The translations under genes and the position numbers were made by a program. A DNA stretch of 64,000 bases from Alphaproteobacteria bacterium (GTDB taxonomy: Bacteria > Pseudomonadota > Alphaproteobacteria > Puniceispirillales > UBA1172), in contig JADHOM010000004.1 in NCBI GenBank assembly GCA_016778985.1, positions 1 through 64,000 of the forward strand, in the 5' to 3' direction. This document shows, one piece after another, positions 2,335 through 30,856 of this stretch (within the stretch, counting starts at the first letter, position 1; each line of letters begins with the position of its first letter). The notes beneath the pieces are model-generated. The model did not search any database. It saw nothing but the letters and a program-made list of their open reading frames with translations, and was not told where the DNA came from.

Positions 2335-3753
2335 TTAGCTGAAATAGTATTGATATATCATCACAAGATAGACAATCGCACACCAGATCAAGGCTAGAAA
2401 AACTGCCGCACTGCCATAATCTTTGGCGCGCTTTGATAAGCCATGCTTTTCATAAGATATTCTGTCAATGGCAGATTCAACGCTCGAATTAACCAGTTCA
2501 ATAATAAGCACAAAGATAACCGAACCTATCATGATTAATGTTTCGATAGGGGAGGCAGGAAGCCATATCGCAAATGTAATCAATATAATTGCAAGAACCA
2601 ATTCTTGCCTGAAGGCACTTTCTTCTTGAAGTGCAAAGCGCAATCCACCCAAGGAATGTTTCAGCGCATTGGCGGCCCGAAGCAAGCCAGTATTATTCTT
2701 ATATGGATTTGAGGCTGGCGAATATTCATCATCCTTTTGTGCCAGCACCAAATGGCCCTCAAAAATATTGGTGGCATGGCTCCACGAAAATCCTTCGGCA
2801 TGTGATCTTGCTTGCTGCCGGTCGATCTGCAAGGCTTGCTTGACAGCAACACCGAGATCATTGTCCAGAGCGCCGGCATCTGATGAGCCGATCACATCAA
2901 TCGGCCCGGTCACGGGATAAGCGGCTACGGGCAGACCGCATGCCATGGCTTCAAGCAGCACAAGACCAAATGTATCAGTTTGGGATGGGAAGACAAAAAC
3001 ATCCGCTTTGCCATAATATTCGGGCAAATCCTCTTTTGGCTTCATGCCATGAAATATCGTATCAGGATACGCTTTTTCTAACCTTGGTCTTGCCGGCCCA
3101 TCACCAACAATCCACTTTTCAGCCGCAATGTTAAGCTTGAGAAATTCCTCTAGGTTTTTCTCCACCGCCACTCTGCCAACATATAGCAGAATGGGTATTT
3201 TATTTTTACGGCGTGATTTAGGGGGCGAAAATAATTCTAAATCAACCCCGCGTGGCCATAAAACGGCATGACCAATACCATGATCGCCAAGATCAGAAAT
3301 GACCTTTTGTGATGGTGCCATCACGGCTTCCGCATTTTTGTGAAACCATTTTAAGAACATGTAACTGACTGATAGCGGCAACCTAAATCGTGAATGAACA
3401 TATTCAGGAAACCGTGTGTGATAGCCAGTTGTAAACCGCAGGCCATTGCGCAGGCAAAAATTGCGCGCCGCCAAGCCTAAAGGTCCTTCGGTTGCGATAT
3501 GGATAATCTCTGGGCTGATTTGCCTGATGAACTTGGCCACTTTGCTAGCAGGGAAAAGGGCAAGACGAATTTCTGGATAGGTTGGGCAAGGGATCGTCCG
3601 AAAGCCTTCTGGCGTCAGCATAGTCACATCATGACCTTTGGCGATAAGCTCATCTCGGGTATGCGTCAGCGTTCTGACAACGCCGTTCACTTGCGGGTAC
3701 CATGCATCTGTGACAATCAGAATTTTTTTGTTTTTGTGAATGCTATCACTCAT
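2335..3753 (-). CDS. GT4 glycosyltransferase fused to DgkA-type diacylglycerol kinase (Agt-like)
   Basis: Predicted 472-residue two-domain protein. Residues 1 to about 345 are a GT4 (GT-B fold) glycosyltransferase: DAWYPQVNGVVRTL near the N-terminus, LLYVGRVAVEKNLEEFL, and the EX7E-type nucleotide-sugar motif TDTFGLVLLEAMACGLP. Residues 351-472 are a complete prokaryotic diacylglycerol kinase with three hydrophobic helices and its signature segments EESAFRQE, IELVNSSVESAIDRI and HGLSKRAKDYGSAAV, close to E. coli DgkA. The GT half resembles Agt-type enzymes that glycosylate diacylglycerol. The start chosen is ATG 3753, which overlaps the stop of the upstream phosphoesterase (ATGA), so the two are translationally coupled. 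The DgkA half would return diacylglycerol to phosphatidate. The product is probably inner-membrane bound. Which sugar is used is unknown. Confidence 0.85.
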   Translation of the reverse strand: MSDSIHKNKKILIVTDAWYPQVNGVVRTLTHTRDELIAKGHDVTMLTPEGFRTIPCPTYPEIRLALFPASKVAKFIRQISPEIIHIATEGPLGLAARNFCLRNGLRFTTGYHTRFPEYVHSRFRLPLSVSYMFLKWFHKNAEAVMAPSQKVISDLGDHGIGHAVLWPRGVDLELFSPPKSRRKNKIPILLYVGRVAVEKNLEEFLKLNIAAEKWIVGDGPARPRLEKAYPDTIFHGMKPKEDLPEYYGKADVFVFPSQTDTFGLVLLEAMACGLPVAAYPVTGPIDVIGSSDAGALDNDLGVAVKQALQIDRQQARSHAEGFSWSHATNIFEGHLVLAQKDDEYSPASNPYKNNTGLLRAANALKHSLGGLRFALQEESAFRQELVLAIILITFAIWLPASPIETLIMIGSVIFVLIIELVNSSVESAIDRISYEKHGLSKRAKDYGSAAVFLALIWCAIVYLVMIYQYYFS

Positions 3754-4637
3754 GCGGCTTTGCCTGATGATATCTTCATTTGGCTTGGGGTCATCTTGAT
3801 ATTGTTTTCTGTTTGTAAGCCATGCGTGCCCCATTGCAGCACTTCAAGCCGACCATCTCTATGTTCGACAAAGGCGGTTAGGCTCTCAACCCAGTCGCCG
3901 GCATTGGCGTAAATAATATCATCCATCTGCTTTAATTCGGCTTTATGAATATGGCCGCAGACAACACCATGACACTCCCGACGTTTTGTCTCTTTAACCA
4001 TCACAGTTTCAAAAGCAGACATAAAAGAGACAGCTAATTTAACCTTGTGTTTGAGATATTGTGATAATGACCAATAGGGTAATTTGAACATCCGCCTGAT
4101 CTTGTTCAGCCATTTATTCATGTTCAGCAATGTCGAGTAAGCAAAATCGCCAAGATAGGCTAACCATCTGGCATATTTGATGACATGGTCAAACAAATCG
4201 CCATGCACCACCCAAAGCCGTATCCCTGTGACCGTTTCATGAATATCGGTATCTTTAATAGCAATCTCGCCAAACATATTGCCGATAAATTGTCTGGCCG
4301 CTTCATCATGGTTGCCGGGGATATAGATGACTTTTGTTCCATGTCGAGCTTTTCTCAGTATTTTTTGAATGACGTCATTATGTGGTTGTGGCCAGTACCA
4401 TTTCCTTTTTAACCGCCATCCATCAATGATATCACCGACTAAATACAGCTTATCTGATCGCGTGTGTTTCAAAAAATCGAGCAGCGCTTCATGTTGGGCG
4501 CCAGGCGTTCCCAGATGCGTGTCTGATATGAAGACAGTGCGGTAGTCATGTATTTCTCTTTCATGACGGTCGAGATAAGCAAATTGATCTGTTGGTTTTT
4601 GTGTTTCTTTTGGCGTATCGGAGGTCTGAAATTTCAC
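3750..4637 (-). CDS. plcP: Calcineurin-type phosphoesterase, PlcP-like phospholipid hydrolase (LpxH-related)
   Basis: 295-residue metallophosphoesterase with the full metal-binding set: FISDTHLG (Asp39, His41), LVGDIIDG (Asp69), PGNHDE (108-112), VVHGD near 144 and CGHIHKAE near 220. General annotation would be UDP-2,3-diacylglucosamine diphosphatase (LpxH). The sequence and context fit better the PlcP group, which hydrolyses phosphatidylglycerol and phosphatidylethanolamine to diacylglycerol under phosphate starvation: it overlaps by ATGA an Agt-like glycosyltransferase and is divergent from phoB. The apparent start is GTG 4637, as no in-frame ATG precedes the domain. A PHO-box-like inverted site lies 46 nt upstream. 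A housekeeping role in lipid A synthesis is the alternative. Confidence 0.8.
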   Translation of the reverse strand: MKFQTSDTPKETQKPTDQFAYLDRHEREIHDYRTVFISDTHLGTPGAQHEALLDFLKHTRSDKLYLVGDIIDGWRLKRKWYWPQPHNDVIQKILRKARHGTKVIYIPGNHDEAARQFIGNMFGEIAIKDTDIHETVTGIRLWVVHGDLFDHVIKYARWLAYLGDFAYSTLLNMNKWLNKIRRMFKLPYWSLSQYLKHKVKLAVSFMSAFETVMVKETKRRECHGVVCGHIHKAELKQMDDIIYANAGDWVESLTAFVEHRDGRLEVLQWGTHGLQTENNIKMTPSQMKISSGKAA

Positions 4638-4683
4638 TTGGCAACTCTATCATGATTAAAAAACACAACTTATTCCCGTATTG

Positions 4684-4699
4684 TGACAAAGAGATGACA
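4684..4699 (-). promoter_or_regulatory. PHO-box-like site upstream of plcP
   Basis: Read on the minus strand the sequence is TGTCATCTCTTTGTCA: two perfect TGTCA half-sites separated by 6 bases, the 11-bp repeat expected for a PhoB dimer. It lies 46 nt upstream of the plcP start, about where a PhoB site replaces the -35 element. This is the best PHO box in the window. Confidence 0.65.
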
Positions 4700-4785
4700 T
4701 TTAGGTTATGCATTCATGTCAATTTGCGAAGGCGGTCATCCAGAAAAGCGCCGAACAGCAATGGCATATCTGAATTGATATGATT

Positions 4786-4803: not shown

Positions 4804-4878
4804 AAACATCACATAAATAACATTTATGGACACAAGTTTGAGGTGTATATGAACTATATATCTATTGAGGATAGACTG

Positions 4879-5580
4879 ATGACTACCCGCGTATTAATCG
4901 CGGATGATGAGTGCAATCAGCAAGAGTTATTGGCGTATAACTTGGAGAAAGCCGGGTTTTCAGTAATCCAAGCAAGTGATGGTCAAAAAGCCTTAGACTT
5001 AGCTGAAGAAACCATTCCTGATATTATTATTCTTGATTGGATGATGCCAAATATGTCAGGCATTGATGTCTGCCGATCTTTGCGGCGGATATCGGAAACC
5101 AGACAAATTCCTGTCATCATGCTAAGTGCAAGAGGTGAGGAAGGCGATAGAACTCTTGGTCTAGATGTCGGTGCAGATGATTATATCACCAAGCCATTTT
5201 CGCCAAAAGAGGTCATTGCCCGCATCCGAGCAGTGCTCAGGCGATCTCGGCCATTGCTGATGAATGATGTCATTGCGTTTGCTGATCTCAAGCTCTACCC
5301 TCGCAAGAAAATCGTCGAACGTAATGGCCAAGCGATCCATTTAGGACCTAAAGAGTTCGATATTCTAGCCCTTCTCATGGAGCGTCCCGGACAGGTGTAT
5401 AGCCGAACCCAGTTATTAGATCATGTCTGGGGGCATGGAATATATATCGAAGATCGGACTATTGATGTTCATTTCAGTCGATTGCGAAAAGCGCTTAATT
5501 CGAATAAAAATGGTAACAATCATCCTGATATCATCCGCACGGTTCGGGGCAGTGGCTATGCGTTGCGGTTGCCCGAATAA
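4879..5580 (+). CDS. phoB: Phosphate regulon response regulator PhoB
   Basis: 233-residue OmpR/PhoB-family response regulator. The receiver domain (residues 1-120) has the acidic pair (ADDE), phospho-acceptor Asp53 in IILDWMMP, and the Lys of ITKPFSP. The C-terminal winged-helix domain carries LGPKEFDILALLMERPG, RTQLLDHVWG and RTIDVHFSRLRKAL, ending IIRTVRGSGYAL, all very close to PhoB. The start at ATG 4879 (before TTRVLIADD) has GAGG upstream and matches PhoB N-termini; an upstream in-frame ATG at 4843 would add 12 unlikely residues. No PhoR kinase, PstSCAB or PhoU lies nearby. It is divergent from plcP, with a PHO-box-like site in front of each gene. It should activate target promoters when phosphate is limiting. 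Confidence 0.85.
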   Translation: MTTRVLIADDECNQQELLAYNLEKAGFSVIQASDGQKALDLAEETIPDIIILDWMMPNMSGIDVCRSLRRISETRQIPVIMLSARGEEGDRTLGLDVGADDYITKPFSPKEVIARIRAVLRRSRPLLMNDVIAFADLKLYPRKKIVERNGQAIHLGPKEFDILALLMERPGQVYSRTQLLDHVWGHGIYIEDRTIDVHFSRLRKALNSNKNGNNHPDIIRTVRGSGYALRLPE

Positions 5581-24779: not shown

Positions 24780-26471
24780 TTATTTTATTATGGAGGGCAG
24801 ATTTAATTCGTGTTCTTTGGCACAGGCGATAGCATCCTCATAACCGGCATCAGCGTGCCGCATGACGCCTGTTGCTGGATCATTCCAAAGCACGCGTTCG
24901 AGTCTGGCATCAGCTTCTTTCGTGCCGTCACAACAAATAACCATGCCAGAATGTTGCGAGAAGCCCATGCCAACGCCGCCGCCATGATGTAATGAAACCC
25001 AAGTCGCGCCTGAGGCGGTATTAAGCAAAGCATTTAACAGCGGCCAGTCACTAACTGCGTCACTGCCATCAGGCATGGCTTCGGTTTCGCGATTAGGGCT
25101 GGCGACAGAGCCACTATCTAAATGATCACGGCCGATTACAACAGGCGCCTTTAATTCGCCATTGCGAACCATTTCATTGAACGCTAGTCCAAGCTTATGA
25201 CGCTGGCCAAGACCGACCCAGCATATTCGTGCTGGCAGGCCTTGAAAATGAATCCGCGCGCGCGCCATATCTAACCAGTTATGCAGATGCGGATCATCAA
25301 TCAGCTCTTTGACCTTGGCATCGGTCCGATAGATATCCTCGGGATCACCGGATAACGCGCACCAGCGGAAAGGGCCGATGCCGCGGCAGAATAATGGCCT
25401 GATATAAGCAGGCACAAAGCCCGGAAAGGCAAAGGCGTTTTCCAGTCCTTCTTCCCTCGCAACTTGCCGTATATTATTGCCATAATCCAAAGTAGGAACG
25501 CCCGCATTCCAGAAATCAACCATAGCGGCAACATGGGTTTTCATGCTAGCTCGCGCGGCGGCTTCCACCGCTTTTGGATCGGCCTCGCGCATTTGTCGCC
25601 ATTCGGCTAGTGACCAGCCCAGTGGCAAATATCCGTTGATGGGATCATGCGCGCTGGTCTGATCTGTCACGATATCCGGCCTGATGCCTTCTCTATAGAT
25701 TTGTGGGAAGATGTCAGCGGCATTGCCGATCAGACCAATAGATTTTGCCTCACCTTTTGCCGTCCATGCCTCTATCTGTCTGATAGCATCCTCTAGGTTA
25801 TCAGTTTTTTCATCGAGATAGCCGGTTTTTAAACGCATATCGATCCGGCTTTCATCACACTCGACGGCTAGGCAACAGGCCCCTGCCATAACTGCGGCCA
25901 AGGGTTGGGCGCCGCCCATGCCGCCAAGTCCAGCGGTCAATATCCAGCGGCCGGTCAGATCACCATCATAATGCTGGCGGCCAGCCTCAACAAAGGTTTC
26001 ATAGGTTCCTTGAACAATGCCTTGGGTGCCAATGTATATCCATGAGCCAGCTGTCATTTGACCATACATGGCCAGCCCTTTGCGATCCAGCTCATTAAAA
26101 TGATCCCATGTTGCCCAGTTCGGCACGAGATTGGAATTCGCAATCAGGACGCGCGGCGCATTAGAATGCGTTTGAAACACTCCCACCGGCTTACCAGACT
26201 GAACAAGTAGAGTTTGATCGTCCTCAAGATCACGTAGGCTAGCCACAATAGCATCAAAATCTTCCCATGATCGCGCCGCCCGGCCAATGCCACCATAGAC
26301 CACCAGCTCATGCGGATTTTCTGCCACCTCAGGGTGGAGATTATTCATCAACATTCGCAAAGGCGCCTCGGTTAACCAGCTTTTGGCTGTTATTTTATCG
26401 CCAGTATCTGGATAGACGTCTCTAATATTATGTCGAGTGTTGGTATGGGGGGGATTGTTCTGGTCAGCCAT
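24780..26471 (-). CDS. hutU: Urocanate hydratase
   Basis: 563-residue NAD-dependent hydratase converting urocanate to imidazolonepropionate, step 2 of histidine degradation. Recognised from [24 protein letters not shown] at the N-terminus, [22 protein letters not shown], the NAD-binding [17 protein letters not shown], and [25 protein letters not shown] near the active site. Start ATG 26471 (MADQNN) is chosen because AGGAGA lies 8 nt upstream; in-frame starts at 26489 and 26477 fit worse. 73 nt downstream of hutH in the same direction. Confidence 0.95.
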
Positions 26472-26544
26472 ATTCATTTCTCCTACCAATGAGCTGATGA
26501 TTCGGTACTGTGTTTTTCCGCATATTTTAGTTCAAAATCTTGCA

Positions 26545-28086
26545 TTACGCGTCAAAAAATCCTTGCGTGCCAGCTGTTTCGACAAGCTCTCTATCATGGA
26601 GCAGTTGTGCCATTATATTGATATCTTTTGCCATATACCGATCATCTTCAAGCGCTGGAATATGCTGTCTGATAATGGTCAATACAGCCTCTAAAATAGG
26701 GCTTGTTTCAAGCGGCCTGCGGAAATCGACACCCTGTGCGGCGGCTAATAATTCGACGGCAATAATATGCGTTAGATTTATTGTCATGCGCTGCAATCTA
26801 AGCGCTGCATGTGCTGCCATGCTAACATGATCTTCCTGATTTGCCGATGTTGGGGTGCTGTCGGTTGAACATGGATTAGCCAGATGGCGGTTTTCGCTCA
26901 TCAGCGCCGCCGACGTGACTTCGGCAATCATGAAACCAGAATTAAGCCCTGGCTTTGGCGACAAAAATGGCGGCAGGTTAAACGACAGATTGGGGTCAAC
27001 CATGAGCGCAATCCGGCGCTGGCTGATCGCACCTGTCTCGGCAATGGCAAGGGCAATCTGATCAGCTGCAAAAGCAACAGGTTCTGCATGAAAGTTTCCT
27101 CCCGATACAATCAAGCCTTCATCGACAAGGACAATCGGGTTATCTGTAACAGCATTGGACTCTATGGCTAAAGTTGCGGCGGCGGCATCCAGAATATCTA
27201 CTGCCGCCCCCAGCACCTGAGGCTGACAGCGAATACAATAAGGGTCCTGAACACGTTCATCATCATCACGATGGCTTTCTCTAATGGTTGATCCTGCCAA
27301 TATACGGCGGCTCTCCCGCGCCACCCTGATCTGTCCATTTAACCCCCGCAATTCATGAATGCCGGGCAGGGTAGGTGATGTTGATCCCATAATAGCATCT
27401 GTCGTCAATGCGCCCGAAACAATGGCAGTCATAATAAGATGACGAGTTTGCCATAATCCGATCATCGCCATTGCCGTTGAAAATTGTGTGCCATTGATCA
27501 ATGCCAGACCTTCCTTAGGGGCAAGAGTTAGTGGTTCTAGCGCGGCCTTCTGAAGCGCCTCACTGCTGGCTATGCGTTGGCCTTTGTAATAAACTTCTCC
27601 CTCACCAATCAGCGCGGCGGTCATATGCGCTAGTGGGGCGAGATCACCTGATGCGCCAACAGACCCCTGTTCAGGGATAACGGGGATGATGTCTGTGGCT
27701 AACATTTTTTGTAGCATCATGATCGTATCCCAGCGCACCCCAGATGCCCCGCGCGCGAGGGAATTGATTTTGAGCATCATCATCAGACGTGTCGCTGGCA
27801 AATCAAGCGCTTGACCTACACCCGCACAATGCGACAAGATCAGATTGCGTTGCAGTATTTTGACCTCATCAATATCAATCCTGACAGAAGCCAATTTGCC
27901 GAAACCGGTATTTATTCCATACACAGGTGTATCACCGGCAGCAGCATCGGCAACCAGCCTGGCCGCCTGATCTATGCGGGGTTTGGCGGCTGGATCAATA
28001 TCCACAATCTTGCCATACCGCCACAGATTTTCCCACTCTTTCAGCGTCACCTGTCCCGGCTGAATAGTATATGATGGGCTGGTCAT
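26545..28086 (-). CDS. hutH: Histidine ammonia-lyase
   Basis: 513 residues, the standard HutH length. Catalyses L-histidine to urocanate plus ammonia, the first step. The Ala145-Ser146-Gly147 triad in [17 protein letters not shown] forms the MIO cofactor; [11 protein letters not shown] holds the catalytic Tyr56; NPAVTDNP-like [10 protein letters not shown] and [14 protein letters not shown] are further family motifs. The start overlaps the hutI stop by ATGA, so hutI and hutH are translationally coupled. Confidence 0.95.
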
Positions 28087-29291
28087 AACTGACCTCTTAT
28101 GACTCGACGGATCAGCGGATTATATCCGATCCGATAACTTAACTCAGCGGGGTGGGTGATATCCCACCATGCCAGATCAGCCGCATAGCCTTTCACCAGA
28201 CGGCCATGATTAGCCATGCCTAGGGCGTGTGCGGCGTGATGCGTAACCCCACGCAAAATTTCTTCAGGCGTCATTCGGAACATAGTTGCTGACATATTCA
28301 TGGCTAGCAATAGCGAGGTCAGAGGCGAGGAGCCGGGATTGCAATCTGTCGATACCGCCATAGGAACCTGATATTTTCGGAAAGCATCAATCGGCGGTAC
28401 TTGAGTTTCTCTTAACGTATAAAAAGCACCGGGCAGTAAAACCGCCACCGAACCGGCTTTAGCCATCGCTTGTGCATCATCAGCATTAGCATATTCCAGA
28501 TGATCAACCGATATAGCATTATAACTGGCCGCCAGTTTGGTGCCGCCTAAATGCGATAATTGTTCAGCATGAAGTTTAACCGGCAGGCCAAGTGATTTGG
28601 CTTTATCGAACACTCTCATGATTTGTTGAGGGGTAAAGGCAATCCCTTCACAGAACCCATCAACAGCATCAACAAGTCCTTTGGCATGTGCCGCATCCAG
28701 TGCTGGAATAACGACCTGATCAATATATTCATCAGGCTTATCCCTATATTCATCAGGCAGCGCATGAGCGCCTAAAAATGTTGTTGTGACGGTGATATCT
28801 CTCAGCGCTGTGAGCGCGCGTGCGGCCTCTAGCATCCGACATTCGGTGTCGATATCCAGCCCATATCCAGATTTGATTTCGACGATTGAAACGCCTTCAG
28901 CTATCAAATGATCCAGCCGGATCAAAGCGCTACTAATCAACTCATCTATGGTGGCGGCGCGGGTTGCCCTCACCGTGGAATTAATGCCGCCACCTGCCCG
29001 CGCTAGCTCTTCATAGCCAGCACCATTTAGTCGCATCTCAAACTCAATAGCGCGGTCGCCACCATGGACAATATGAGTATGACAGTCAATCAGGGCAGGT
29101 GTGATCAATGCCCCATTTGCATCAAAACTATCGTTAGATTGAACAGCATCGCTGTTAAGATAAGGGCAATCCTGCCGCCTCCCAACCCATTCAATATGGT
29201 GGTCATTAATGACTAACACGCCATCAGCAATCATGCCGTAATCATCATCACTTTGTAGCGTTACCAAGGTGGCATTATGGATAATTTTCAC
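28083..29291 (-). CDS. hutI: Imidazolonepropionase
   Basis: 402-residue metal-dependent amidohydrolase opening the imidazolone ring to N-formimino-L-glutamate, step 3. Metal ligands lie in [27 protein letters not shown] and [21 protein letters not shown] contacts substrate. It is the first gene of the minus-strand hut run. An inverted repeat resembling a HutC operator lies 36 nt upstream in the 161-nt divergent spacer shared with hutF. Confidence 0.95.
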
Positions 29292-29327
29292 TTATAGTCC
29301 TTGCGTTGAGATGGATTTTCCCTTTAA

Positions 29328-29343
29328 ATATGTATGCACATAT
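29328..29343. promoter_or_regulatory. Putative HutC operator in the hutI-hutF intergenic region
   Basis: ATATGTATGCACATAT has perfect 6-bp inverted arms ATATGT/ACATAT around ATGC, the form expected for a GntR/HutC dimer. It is 36 nt upstream of hutI and 109 nt upstream of hutF, and shares GTATGCACATA with the livK site. The flanking TTTTCCCTTTAAAT also resembles TTTTCCCCTTAAAT near livK. Confidence 0.6.
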
Positions 29344-29452
29344 AAGAAATGAGATCAAGTCAGAACGCTATATATTTTAAGGGTAAAGAGATACTAATAG
29401 AATGCATTTTGCCAATAATATTTAAGCCAATAACAATGAAAAAGGAATATAA

Positions 29453-30856
29453 GTGAGCATGATCACCATAACGGCGGATACGGCACTTACTGAAGCTGGC
29501 TGGCAACAGAATATCCAGCTGAAGATTATTGACGGTAAGATTGATACCATCATCACAACATCAGACGCAGCCTCATCACCTCATGCTCAGGCAGCAGCTG
29601 GTGATATTCATGTTCCTATTTTGCTGCCTGCCCCGTGCAATCTGCATAGCCATGCCTTTCAACGCGCTATGGCTGGATTGACTGAGTTCAGGGGCAGTCA
29701 TGCCGAAGACAGTTTCTGGACATGGCGGCAATTAATGTATCGCTTTCTTGATGTGCTAAGCCCTGAGGATGTTCGGGCTATCGCGGCGCTTGTTCAAATG
29801 GAAATGCTCGAAGCCGGATATGCCGCTATTGGTGAGTTTCATTATCTGCATCACCAAGCTGATGGAACGGCGTATGATGATCTTTCGGTTATGGCCGCCG
29901 CCATTACTGATGCCGTGACGGAAACTGGCATTGGTATGACGTTACTGCCCGTTCTTTATCAATATGGCGGCTGTGATCAACGTCCATTGGGGGCAGGGCA
30001 ACGGCGTTTTGGGTGCGCGCTTGAGCAGTTTTATCAGCTTCATGATGGTGCTGCCAAACTCATATCCGATCTGCCTGCTGATGCCTCAATCGGCGTTGCG
30101 CCACATTCTTTGCGCGCTGTATCCCATGAAGGGCTGATGGCGGCGGCGGCTATGTCCTCGCAAGCGCCTTTCCATATTCATGTTGCCGAACAACAGGCAG
30201 AGGTGGATGAGATTAAGGCGCATACAGGTGCTAGACCGGTAGAATGGTTGCTTGATCAGGTTGCTGTTAATAGCCGCTTCTGCCTTATTCACGCCACCCA
30301 AATGAATATGTCAGAAACCGAAGCTCTGGCCAAATCTGGTGCGGTGGTAGGGTTATGTCCGATCACGGAATCAAATCTAGGTGACGGTATTTTTGATGGC
30401 GCGCGCTATATGGCGCATGGCGGTAAAATCGGCATAGGGTCTGATTCCAATATTCGTATCGCGCTTGCCGAAGAATTACGGACACTAGAATACTCACAAC
30501 GCTTGCGTGATAAAAAACGCAATATCTTAGCAAGCCCTGAAAAATCGGTGGGACGGACTTTATGGGAGGCGGTTAATGCTGGTGGGCATCAAGCCTTGGC
30601 GCGCTATGGCGGCGCTATTCGTACAGGCGCTTGGGCTGATCTGGTTGCCTTGGATAGCACAGCGCTTGATCTGATCCACATAAAAGCTGATCGCATTCTT
30701 GATAGTTTCATGATGGCAGGGGACAGTTCCTTGGTGACAGATGTCTGGTCAGCTGGTCGTCATATGGTGCGATTTGGTCGCCATATTCATCGGGACAGGA
30801 TTATCGCGAACTATGCCCGTCAGGTGAAAGCTTTAAGACAGATGGCTCTATCATGA
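29453..30856 (+). CDS. hutF: Formimidoylglutamate deiminase
   Basis: 467-residue amidohydrolase of the HutF group converting N-formimino-L-glutamate to N-formyl-L-glutamate plus ammonia. Metal-binding CNLHSHAFQRAMAG, FHIHVAEQQAEVDE, CLIHATQMN and GIGSDSNIRIALAEELR are clear. Its presence means the five-step hut pathway, which ends with HutG N-formylglutamate deformylase; HutG is not in this window. GTG 29453 is the probable start (AAGGA 6 nt upstream); ATG 29459 is the alternative. Overlaps hutC by ATGA. Confidence 0.93.
   Translation: MSMITITADTALTEAGWQQNIQLKIIDGKIDTIITTSDAASSPHAQAAAGDIHVPILLPAPCNLHSHAFQRAMAGLTEFRGSHAEDSFWTWRQLMYRFLDVLSPEDVRAIAALVQMEMLEAGYAAIGEFHYLHHQADGTAYDDLSVMAAAITDAVTETGIGMTLLPVLYQYGGCDQRPLGAGQRRFGCALEQFYQLHDGAAKLISDLPADASIGVAPHSLRAVSHEGLMAAAAMSSQAPFHIHVAEQQAEVDEIKAHTGARPVEWLLDQVAVNSRFCLIHATQMNMSETEALAKSGAVVGLCPITESNLGDGIFDGARYMAHGGKIGIGSDSNIRIALAEELRTLEYSQRLRDKKRNILASPEKSVGRTLWEAVNAGGHQALARYGGAIRTGAWADLVALDSTALDLIHIKADRILDSFMMAGDSSLVTDVWSAGRHMVRFGRHIHRDRIIANYARQVKALRQMALS

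What the first reader, a model, noticed from the sequence alone, without database searches (positions are those of the whole stretch)
2335..3753. Glycosyltransferase fused to a diacylglycerol kinase
The GT4 domain (1-345) is followed in the same frame by a full DgkA domain (351-472) with EESAFRQE, ELVNSSVESAID and RAKDYGSAA intact. PlcP makes diacylglycerol; this one protein could either glycosylate it or phosphorylate it back to phosphatidate, acting as a branch-point switch in membrane composition. I cannot tell if the fusion has been characterised.
Basis: partly seen in the sequence, partly recalled or inferred. Interest (0 to 1): 0.7.

Follow-up and report, generated by a model that had tools for sequence, protein, structure and literature searches.

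The report
Fused lipid glycosyltransferase and diacylglycerol kinase
In SAR116 ocean bacteria, the enzyme that turns the phosphate-free lipid core diacylglycerol into a sugar lipid is fused to the enzyme that would turn it back into a phospholipid precursor, and the gene sits beside the gene expected to make that diacylglycerol, so one protein probably holds both exits of a membrane-recycling branch point.

Summary
The fusion is real: minus strand 3753-2335, 472 aa, an Agt/GTcp-type GT4 lipid glycosyltransferase plus a complete DgkA. It overlaps plcP by ATGA; a Pho-box-like site precedes plcP and phoB is divergent. It is not an assembly error: 46 of 136 genomes of the order carry it, three of them single-contig, always with plcP. 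It is the only DAG kinase of either known family in its genome. Of 47 DgkA in the order, 46 are this fusion. All 13 residues shown essential in the SAR11 enzyme, and 16 of 18 functional DgkA sites, are kept; both halves are under purifying selection. Outside SAR116, the same DgkA subfamily appears as a separate third gene, plcP-agt-dgkA, across Burkholderiaceae, where it is usually the only DgkA. A second fusion arose independently in Verticiella, and SAR116 relatives have split or truncated the fusion. Best reading: PlcP frees DAG, the GT half glycosylates it, the kinase half returns the excess to phosphatidate. The branch point is well supported; activity and switching are inferred. No paper in the searchable library describes the fusion or the three-gene operon. 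New variant of the known PlcP-Agt lipid-remodelling system.

The parts
2335..3753 (-). agt-dgkA fusion gene (472 aa plus stop codon)
   Evidence: same fusion in 46 genomes of the order
2749..3726 (-). GT4 lipid glycosyltransferase half (residues 10-335), Agt/GTcp type
   Evidence: Pfam; GRVAVEKN and FPSQTDTFG motifs, H112-D260 dyad and 13 of 13 residues found essential in GTcp present
2704..2748 (-). linker (residues 336-350), low confidence in the AlphaFold model
   Evidence: pLDDT below 50 at 338-340 and 342-347
2338..2703 (-). DgkA diacylglycerol kinase half (residues 351-472): surface helix plus three membrane helices
   Evidence: Pfam 366-465; phmmer to E. coli DgkA; helices 357-377, 379-397, 402-432, 437-471; active-site table
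3750..4637 (-). plcP-like metallophosphoesterase; its TGA stop overlaps the ATG of the fusion gene (ATGA)
   Evidence: Metallophos PF00149; sequence; next to every fused copy tested and present in all 46 fused genomes
4683..4700 (-). Pho-box-like site ATGTCAT-CTCT-TTGTCAC upstream of plcP
   Evidence: 11 of 14 matches to CTGTCAT-N4-CTGTCAT, shuffle p 0.02
4843..5580 (+). phoB-like phosphate response regulator, divergent from plcP
   Evidence: TIGR02154 PhoB 308.9 bits, cut-off 296.2

Best explanation
A bifunctional lipid enzyme of the phosphate-starvation (PlcP-Agt) membrane-remodelling pathway. PlcP cleaves phospholipid to diacylglycerol (DAG); the N-terminal GT4 half transfers a sugar from a UDP-sugar to DAG, giving a phosphate-free glycolipid; the C-terminal DgkA half, an intact ATP-dependent DAG kinase that also anchors the protein in the cytoplasmic membrane, phosphorylates DAG that is not glycosylated back to phosphatidate for phospholipid synthesis. 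The fusion keeps both consumers of PlcP-derived DAG at one place, in fixed ratio and co-translated with PlcP, so free DAG does not accumulate; the outcome would follow the supply of UDP-sugar and ATP. Shown: the fusion, its conservation, intact catalytic residues, purifying selection, linkage to plcP, absence of any other recognisable DAG kinase. Inferred: both activities, PlcP function, DAG as the kinase substrate, competition, Pho control. Regulated switching is speculation.
For: (1) GT half: the sites G24, G90, G93, H112, R168, R194, K199, D260, T261, F262, G263, E268 and W324 match GTcp residues whose mutation abolishes or nearly abolishes activity (PMC8231724) and are invariant in 17 fused proteins. 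(2) Kinase half: 16 of 18 functional E. coli sites (PMC4703834) are identical in the window, including E28, E34, E69, N72, E76, D80, K94 and D95, all invariant in 31 SAR116-type sequences. (3) plcP is directly upstream in every fused copy examined; all 46 fused genomes have plcP, and 46 of 47 DgkA-bearing genomes of the order are plcP-positive (Fisher p 1.7e-24, which ignores relatedness). (4) No other DgkA and no PF00781-type DAG kinase in the own genome, so PlcP is the obvious source of its DAG. (5) The same DgkA subfamily is a separate gene in plcP-agt-dgkA operons of Burkholderiaceae and is the only DgkA in 9 of 12 such genomes. (6) Independent second fusion in Verticiella. (7) dN/dS well below 1 in both halves in the pairs with enough synonymous change. 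(8) A Pho-box-like site in the window (p 0.02); 15 of 41 plcP upstream regions have p<0.05 where about 2 are expected.
Against: No biochemistry. E. coli Trp112, which floors the lipid pocket, is Tyr or His in all 31 SAR116-type kinases but Trp in 51 of 51 betaproteobacterial operon kinases, so acyl preference or activity may differ. T8 and G83 of E. coli are replaced (L, S) in the window. Many bacteria run PlcP-Agt with no DgkA, one SAR116 genus has plcP and agt unlinked with no DgkA, and one lineage has truncated the DgkA half, so the kinase is dispensable. Many SAR116 relatives lack a clear Pho box by this simple scan. Phosphorylating DAG during phosphate starvation partly undoes the phosphate saving.
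Confidence: 0.62

Rival explanations
1. The DgkA half is mainly a trimeric membrane anchor that places and multimerises the glycosyltransferase; its kinase activity is weak or irrelevant.
For: DgkA is a small membrane trimer with a cytoplasmic N terminus (established knowledge), a natural scaffold; Trp112 is lost in the SAR116 clade only; the half can be truncated away (L113).
Against: Catalytic residues invariant in 31 sequences; low dN/dS; in Burkholderiaceae the same kinase subfamily is a separate protein in the operon, where it cannot serve as the GT's covalent anchor; characterised Agt/GTcp enzymes work without any such domain (PMC8231724).
Confidence: 0.13
2. The kinase half phosphorylates a lipid other than PlcP-derived DAG (for example undecaprenol, or the glycolipid product), so the protein is a sequential or unrelated bifunctional enzyme.
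For: DgkA relatives in Gram-positive bacteria act on undecaprenol (own knowledge); altered lipid-pocket residue at E. coli Trp112.
Against: Gene content follows plcP: in the own genus five of seven genomes lack plcP and also lack any DgkA, so no general lipid depends on it; DAG is the acceptor of the attached GT family.
Confidence: 0.1
3. A regulated switch: ATP and UDP-sugar levels, or contact between the halves, decide between glycolipid in starvation and phosphatidate on phosphate recovery, making remodelling quickly reversible.
For: Both activities on one chain next to PlcP; conserved joint architecture; one genus has an adjacent phoB.
Against: No data on regulation; the Burkholderiaceae version works as separate proteins; the linker is short, variable and of low model confidence.
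Confidence: 0.15

Closest known systems
GTcp / Agt, the DAG glycosyltransferase of Candidatus Pelagibacter HTCC7211 and Agrobacterium (GT4)
   Same: GRVAXEKN and FPSXTDTFG motifs, the His-Asp catalytic dyad with Asp in place of the usual Glu, all 13 residues shown essential in GTcp, position behind plcP
   Different: GTcp is 334 aa and stands alone; here a complete DgkA follows in the same chain
PlcP-Agt phosphate-starvation lipid remodelling operon (Sebastian et al. 2016, type 2 context)
   Same: plcP directly upstream of agt with a Pho-box-like site; that paper reports plcP in SAR116
   Different: A third function, DAG kinase, is built in; the paper's text never mentions a kinase
E. coli DgkA (PDB 3ze3, 4uxx and others)
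   Same: Aligned over nearly its full length; 16 of 18 functional sites identical in the window
   Different: Fused C-terminally to a GT; Trp112 replaced by Tyr or His; placed in a plcP operon instead of standing alone

Membership tests
Agt/GTcp DAG glycosyltransferase clade of GT4 | GRVAXEKN and FPSXTDTFG motifs, His-Asp dyad, essential donor and DAG-binding residues | tested here: met
   GRVAVEKN, FPSQTDTFG, H112, D260 in the window; all 13 sites invariant in 17 fused proteins (against PMC8231724)
Agt/GTcp DAG glycosyltransferase clade of GT4 | UDP-sugar-dependent glycosylation of DAG | not testable with these tools
   needs an enzyme assay
DgkA (DAGK_prokar, PF01219) | Pfam match over the cut-off and full-length cover | tested here: met
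   104.8 bits against 22.3, profile positions 2-101 of 102
DgkA (DAGK_prokar, PF01219) | Catalytic Glu69, Asn72, Glu76, Glu28, Glu34, Lys94, Asp95 | tested here: met
   all identical in the window and invariant in 31 SAR116-type sequences
DgkA (DAGK_prokar, PF01219) | Trp112 at the floor of the lipid pocket (common but not absolute: 51 of 57 stand-alone kinases here have it) | tested here: not met
   Tyr in the window; Tyr or His in all 31. Not a defining feature, listed because it departs
DgkA (DAGK_prokar, PF01219) | ATP-dependent phosphorylation of DAG | not testable with these tools
   needs an enzyme assay
PlcP phospholipase C | Metallophosphoesterase encoded directly upstream of agt | tested here: met
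   PF00149 match and ATGA overlap; conserved pairing
PlcP phospholipase C | Sequence kinship to a characterised PlcP rather than LpxH | tested here: inconclusive
   only weak LpxH-family matches far under the cut-off; no characterised PlcP sequence was at hand for a direct comparison
Pho regulon member | Pho box in the promoter | tested here: inconclusive
   11 of 14 matches, p 0.02 in the window; no clear site by this scan in many relatives

The most novel reading that the evidence does not exclude
A single protein that holds both exits of the DAG branch point as a metabolite-gated switch, making phosphate-starvation membrane remodelling rapidly reversible, and a general plcP-agt-dgkA module across Alpha- and Betaproteobacteria in which DgkA's main role is handling PlcP-derived DAG.
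Probability: 0.3. Interest if true: 0.72.

Novelty: new variant of a known kind. Interest (0 to 1): 0.6.

Why it matters
PlcP-Agt remodelling lets abundant ocean bacteria save phosphate, but what happens to surplus DAG, and how the change is reversed, is open as far as the searchable literature shows. A conserved fusion of the two competing DAG consumers, in an order of marine bacteria whose genomes mostly hold no other recognisable DAG kinase, and the parallel three-gene operon in Burkholderiaceae, point to DAG clearance as part of the pathway and give a single clean target for testing it. It also suggests why these bacteria keep DgkA at all.

Tried and rejected
Assembly error or recent join: rejected, 46 genomes. 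Decayed kinase half: rejected, intact sites and low dN/dS; the pair L022/L024 gave dN/dS 1.2 on almost no synonymous change and was disregarded. One origin of all fusions: the GT tree rejects grouping Verticiella with SAR116 (AU p 0.0009), while the short DgkA alignment cannot decide (p 0.17). One clade of all kinase-linked GTs: rejected by the GT tree. Linked DgkA (SAR116 plus betaproteobacterial) fall together in the tree but with weak support (49/91). phoB adjacency as a general feature: among the loci at hand it is seen only in the window's own genus; many loci are short, so this is weak. Other long open frames around DgkA in the phylum sample were, where looked at, stop-to-stop frames without a GT in the same frame. 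The PDB fold search only listed GT-B enzymes for the larger half. Paper searches for the fusion or for plcP with dgkA found nothing relevant; the library lacks most subscription journals.

Full report
What is there. On the minus strand from 3753 to 2335 lies one gene of 472 codons plus stop. Residues 22-296 match the GT4 glycosyltransferase families and residues 366-465 the bacterial diacylglycerol kinase DgkA, far over the curated cut-off. The kinase half aligns over nearly the full length of E. coli DgkA. The gene starts inside the stop codon of the gene upstream, in an ATGA overlap. That gene, 4637-3750, is a metallophosphoesterase of the type called PlcP in this context. Upstream of plcP are a Pho-box-like site (4700-4683, shuffle p 0.02) and a divergent phoB.

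Is it real and how widespread. In the order, 46 of 136 genomes carry the fusion, including three single-contig genomes. The order is identified as the SAR116 cluster from record titles of close members (L098-L102). A search for DgkA alone finds 47 genomes; 46 are this fusion and one is a stand-alone copy in a genome listed with 5% contamination. plcP is present in 57 genomes, among them all 46 with the fusion. In the own genus only two of seven genomes have it, and the five without it lack plcP and DgkA alike. The own genome has no second DgkA and no kinase of the other known family, PF00781, which the same search finds in 13 of 14 control genomes. So in this order DAG kinase of the DgkA type comes and goes with PlcP.

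Beyond the order. A scan of named genomes and frame analysis of the 80 loci give 8 fused, 51 with separate neighbouring genes and 21 with agt only. The separate kind, plcP-agt-dgkA, is widespread in Burkholderiaceae (Polynucleobacter, Ralstonia, Cupriavidus, Pandoraea, Paraburkholderia, Caballeronia, Trinickia). In 9 of 12 such genomes the operon copy is the only DgkA. Their kinases share a typical N terminus with the SAR116 ones (NPHKGN followed further on by EESAFRQE), so the SAR116 linker looks like the old start of a separate dgkA joined to agt. In the class sample about 50 other DgkA are stand-alone.

History. In the DgkA tree the SAR116 fusions and a related alphaproteobacterial group form one supported clade (97/83; 99/90 in the larger tree). 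Inside it, the related group has a fused form (G299, AG-896-A16) and a split form (G201, AG-914-I17): at the junction the frames differ by one base in a run of A, giving a stop and then an ATG a few bases on. Another lineage (AG-911-I18 and two more) ends its agt with YQISKKPYKTNYRFGP, a stump of the linker and kinase start, and nests inside the fused clade in the GT tree, so it has lost the kinase. Genus g16 also nests there without a kinase. Verticiella sp. GG226 carries a separate fusion (L112, 470 aa); the GT tree rejects a common origin (AU p 0.0009). Fusion therefore arose at least twice and was undone more than once.

Are both halves functional. In the SAR11 enzyme GTcp, mutation of G16, G82, G85, H104, R163, R190, K195, D256, T257, F258, G259, E264 and W320 abolishes or nearly abolishes activity (PMC8231724). 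By motif and spacing these correspond here to G24, G90, G93, H112, R168, R194, K199, D260, T261, F262, G263, E268 and W324, all invariant in 17 fused proteins. Of 18 E. coli DgkA sites that affect catalysis (PMC4703834), 16 are identical in the window, and those named there as essential are invariant in 31 sequences. dN/dS is 0.07-0.14 in the GT and 0.05-0.17 in the kinase for pairs with enough synonymous change. The AlphaFold model (mean pLDDT 79.9) shows a GT-B-like enzyme, a poorly modelled linker, and the surface helix plus three long helices of DgkA. DgkA's N terminus is cytoplasmic (established knowledge), so the GT would face the UDP-sugars. One odd point: E. coli Trp112, the floor of the lipid pocket, is Tyr or His in all 31 SAR116-type kinases but Trp in all 51 betaproteobacterial operon kinases.

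How it most likely works. PlcP makes DAG from phospholipid and Agt-type enzymes glycosylate DAG (PMC4796936, PMC8231724). In E. coli DgkA returns DAG to phosphatidate (PMC4703834). With the kinase tied to PlcP in gene content and fused to the competing enzyme, the simplest reading is that PlcP-derived DAG has two exits on one protein: glycolipid, or phosphatidate. This would keep DAG, which disturbs membranes, from building up and would return surplus to phospholipid. Steps shown: anatomy, conservation, linkage, intact sites. Steps inferred: activity, substrate, Pho control. A true switch is possible but unsupported so far.

Against known things. Neither half is new: the GT is a member of the Agt/GTcp clade and the kinase a member of DgkA by the sequence tests listed. 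The combination is a new variant of the PlcP-Agt system. Sebastian et al. noted plcP in SAR116 but their text contains no mention of a kinase, and no held paper describes the fusion or a plcP-agt-dgkA operon. This is a limited library, so a prior description elsewhere cannot be excluded.

Noticed in passing
L253-L332 (viral contigs), e.g. L255:4252-6014 in a 543-kb contig: 80 of 80 retrieved IMG/VR contigs carry plcP next to an agt-like gene (GT only, 39-48% identity, no DgkA). L255 has phage virion structural genes and a PhoH-like gene within a few kb: plcP-agt looks like an auxiliary lipid-remodelling pair of large phages. No held paper has plcP together with 'auxiliary metabolic gene'. Some other contigs (L328) look bacterial by eye.
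   Followed up: partly
DgkA half, residue 462 (window 2368-2370): E. coli DgkA Trp112 is Tyr or His in every SAR116-type kinase and Trp in every betaproteobacterial operon kinase.
   Followed up: no
L060:2480-2500, L117:3760-3790: The gene is split by one base in a run of A in two alphaproteobacterial genomes, with an ATG a few bases after the stop; the same state in both makes a sequencing error unlikely.
   Followed up: partly
L113:3998-5110: agt ending in a stump of linker and kinase start, evidence of loss of the DgkA half.
   Followed up: partly
G018 C1 and C11 (family f2 of the order): Two plcP-like genes, a distant agt (46%) and a PF00781-type DAG kinase instead of DgkA: a different lipid kit within the same order.
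   Followed up: no
window 24780-30856: Histidine-utilisation gene cluster by eye (urocanase, histidase, imidazolonepropionase and a formiminoglutamate deiminase-like gene), beside branched-chain-type ABC transporter genes.
   Followed up: no
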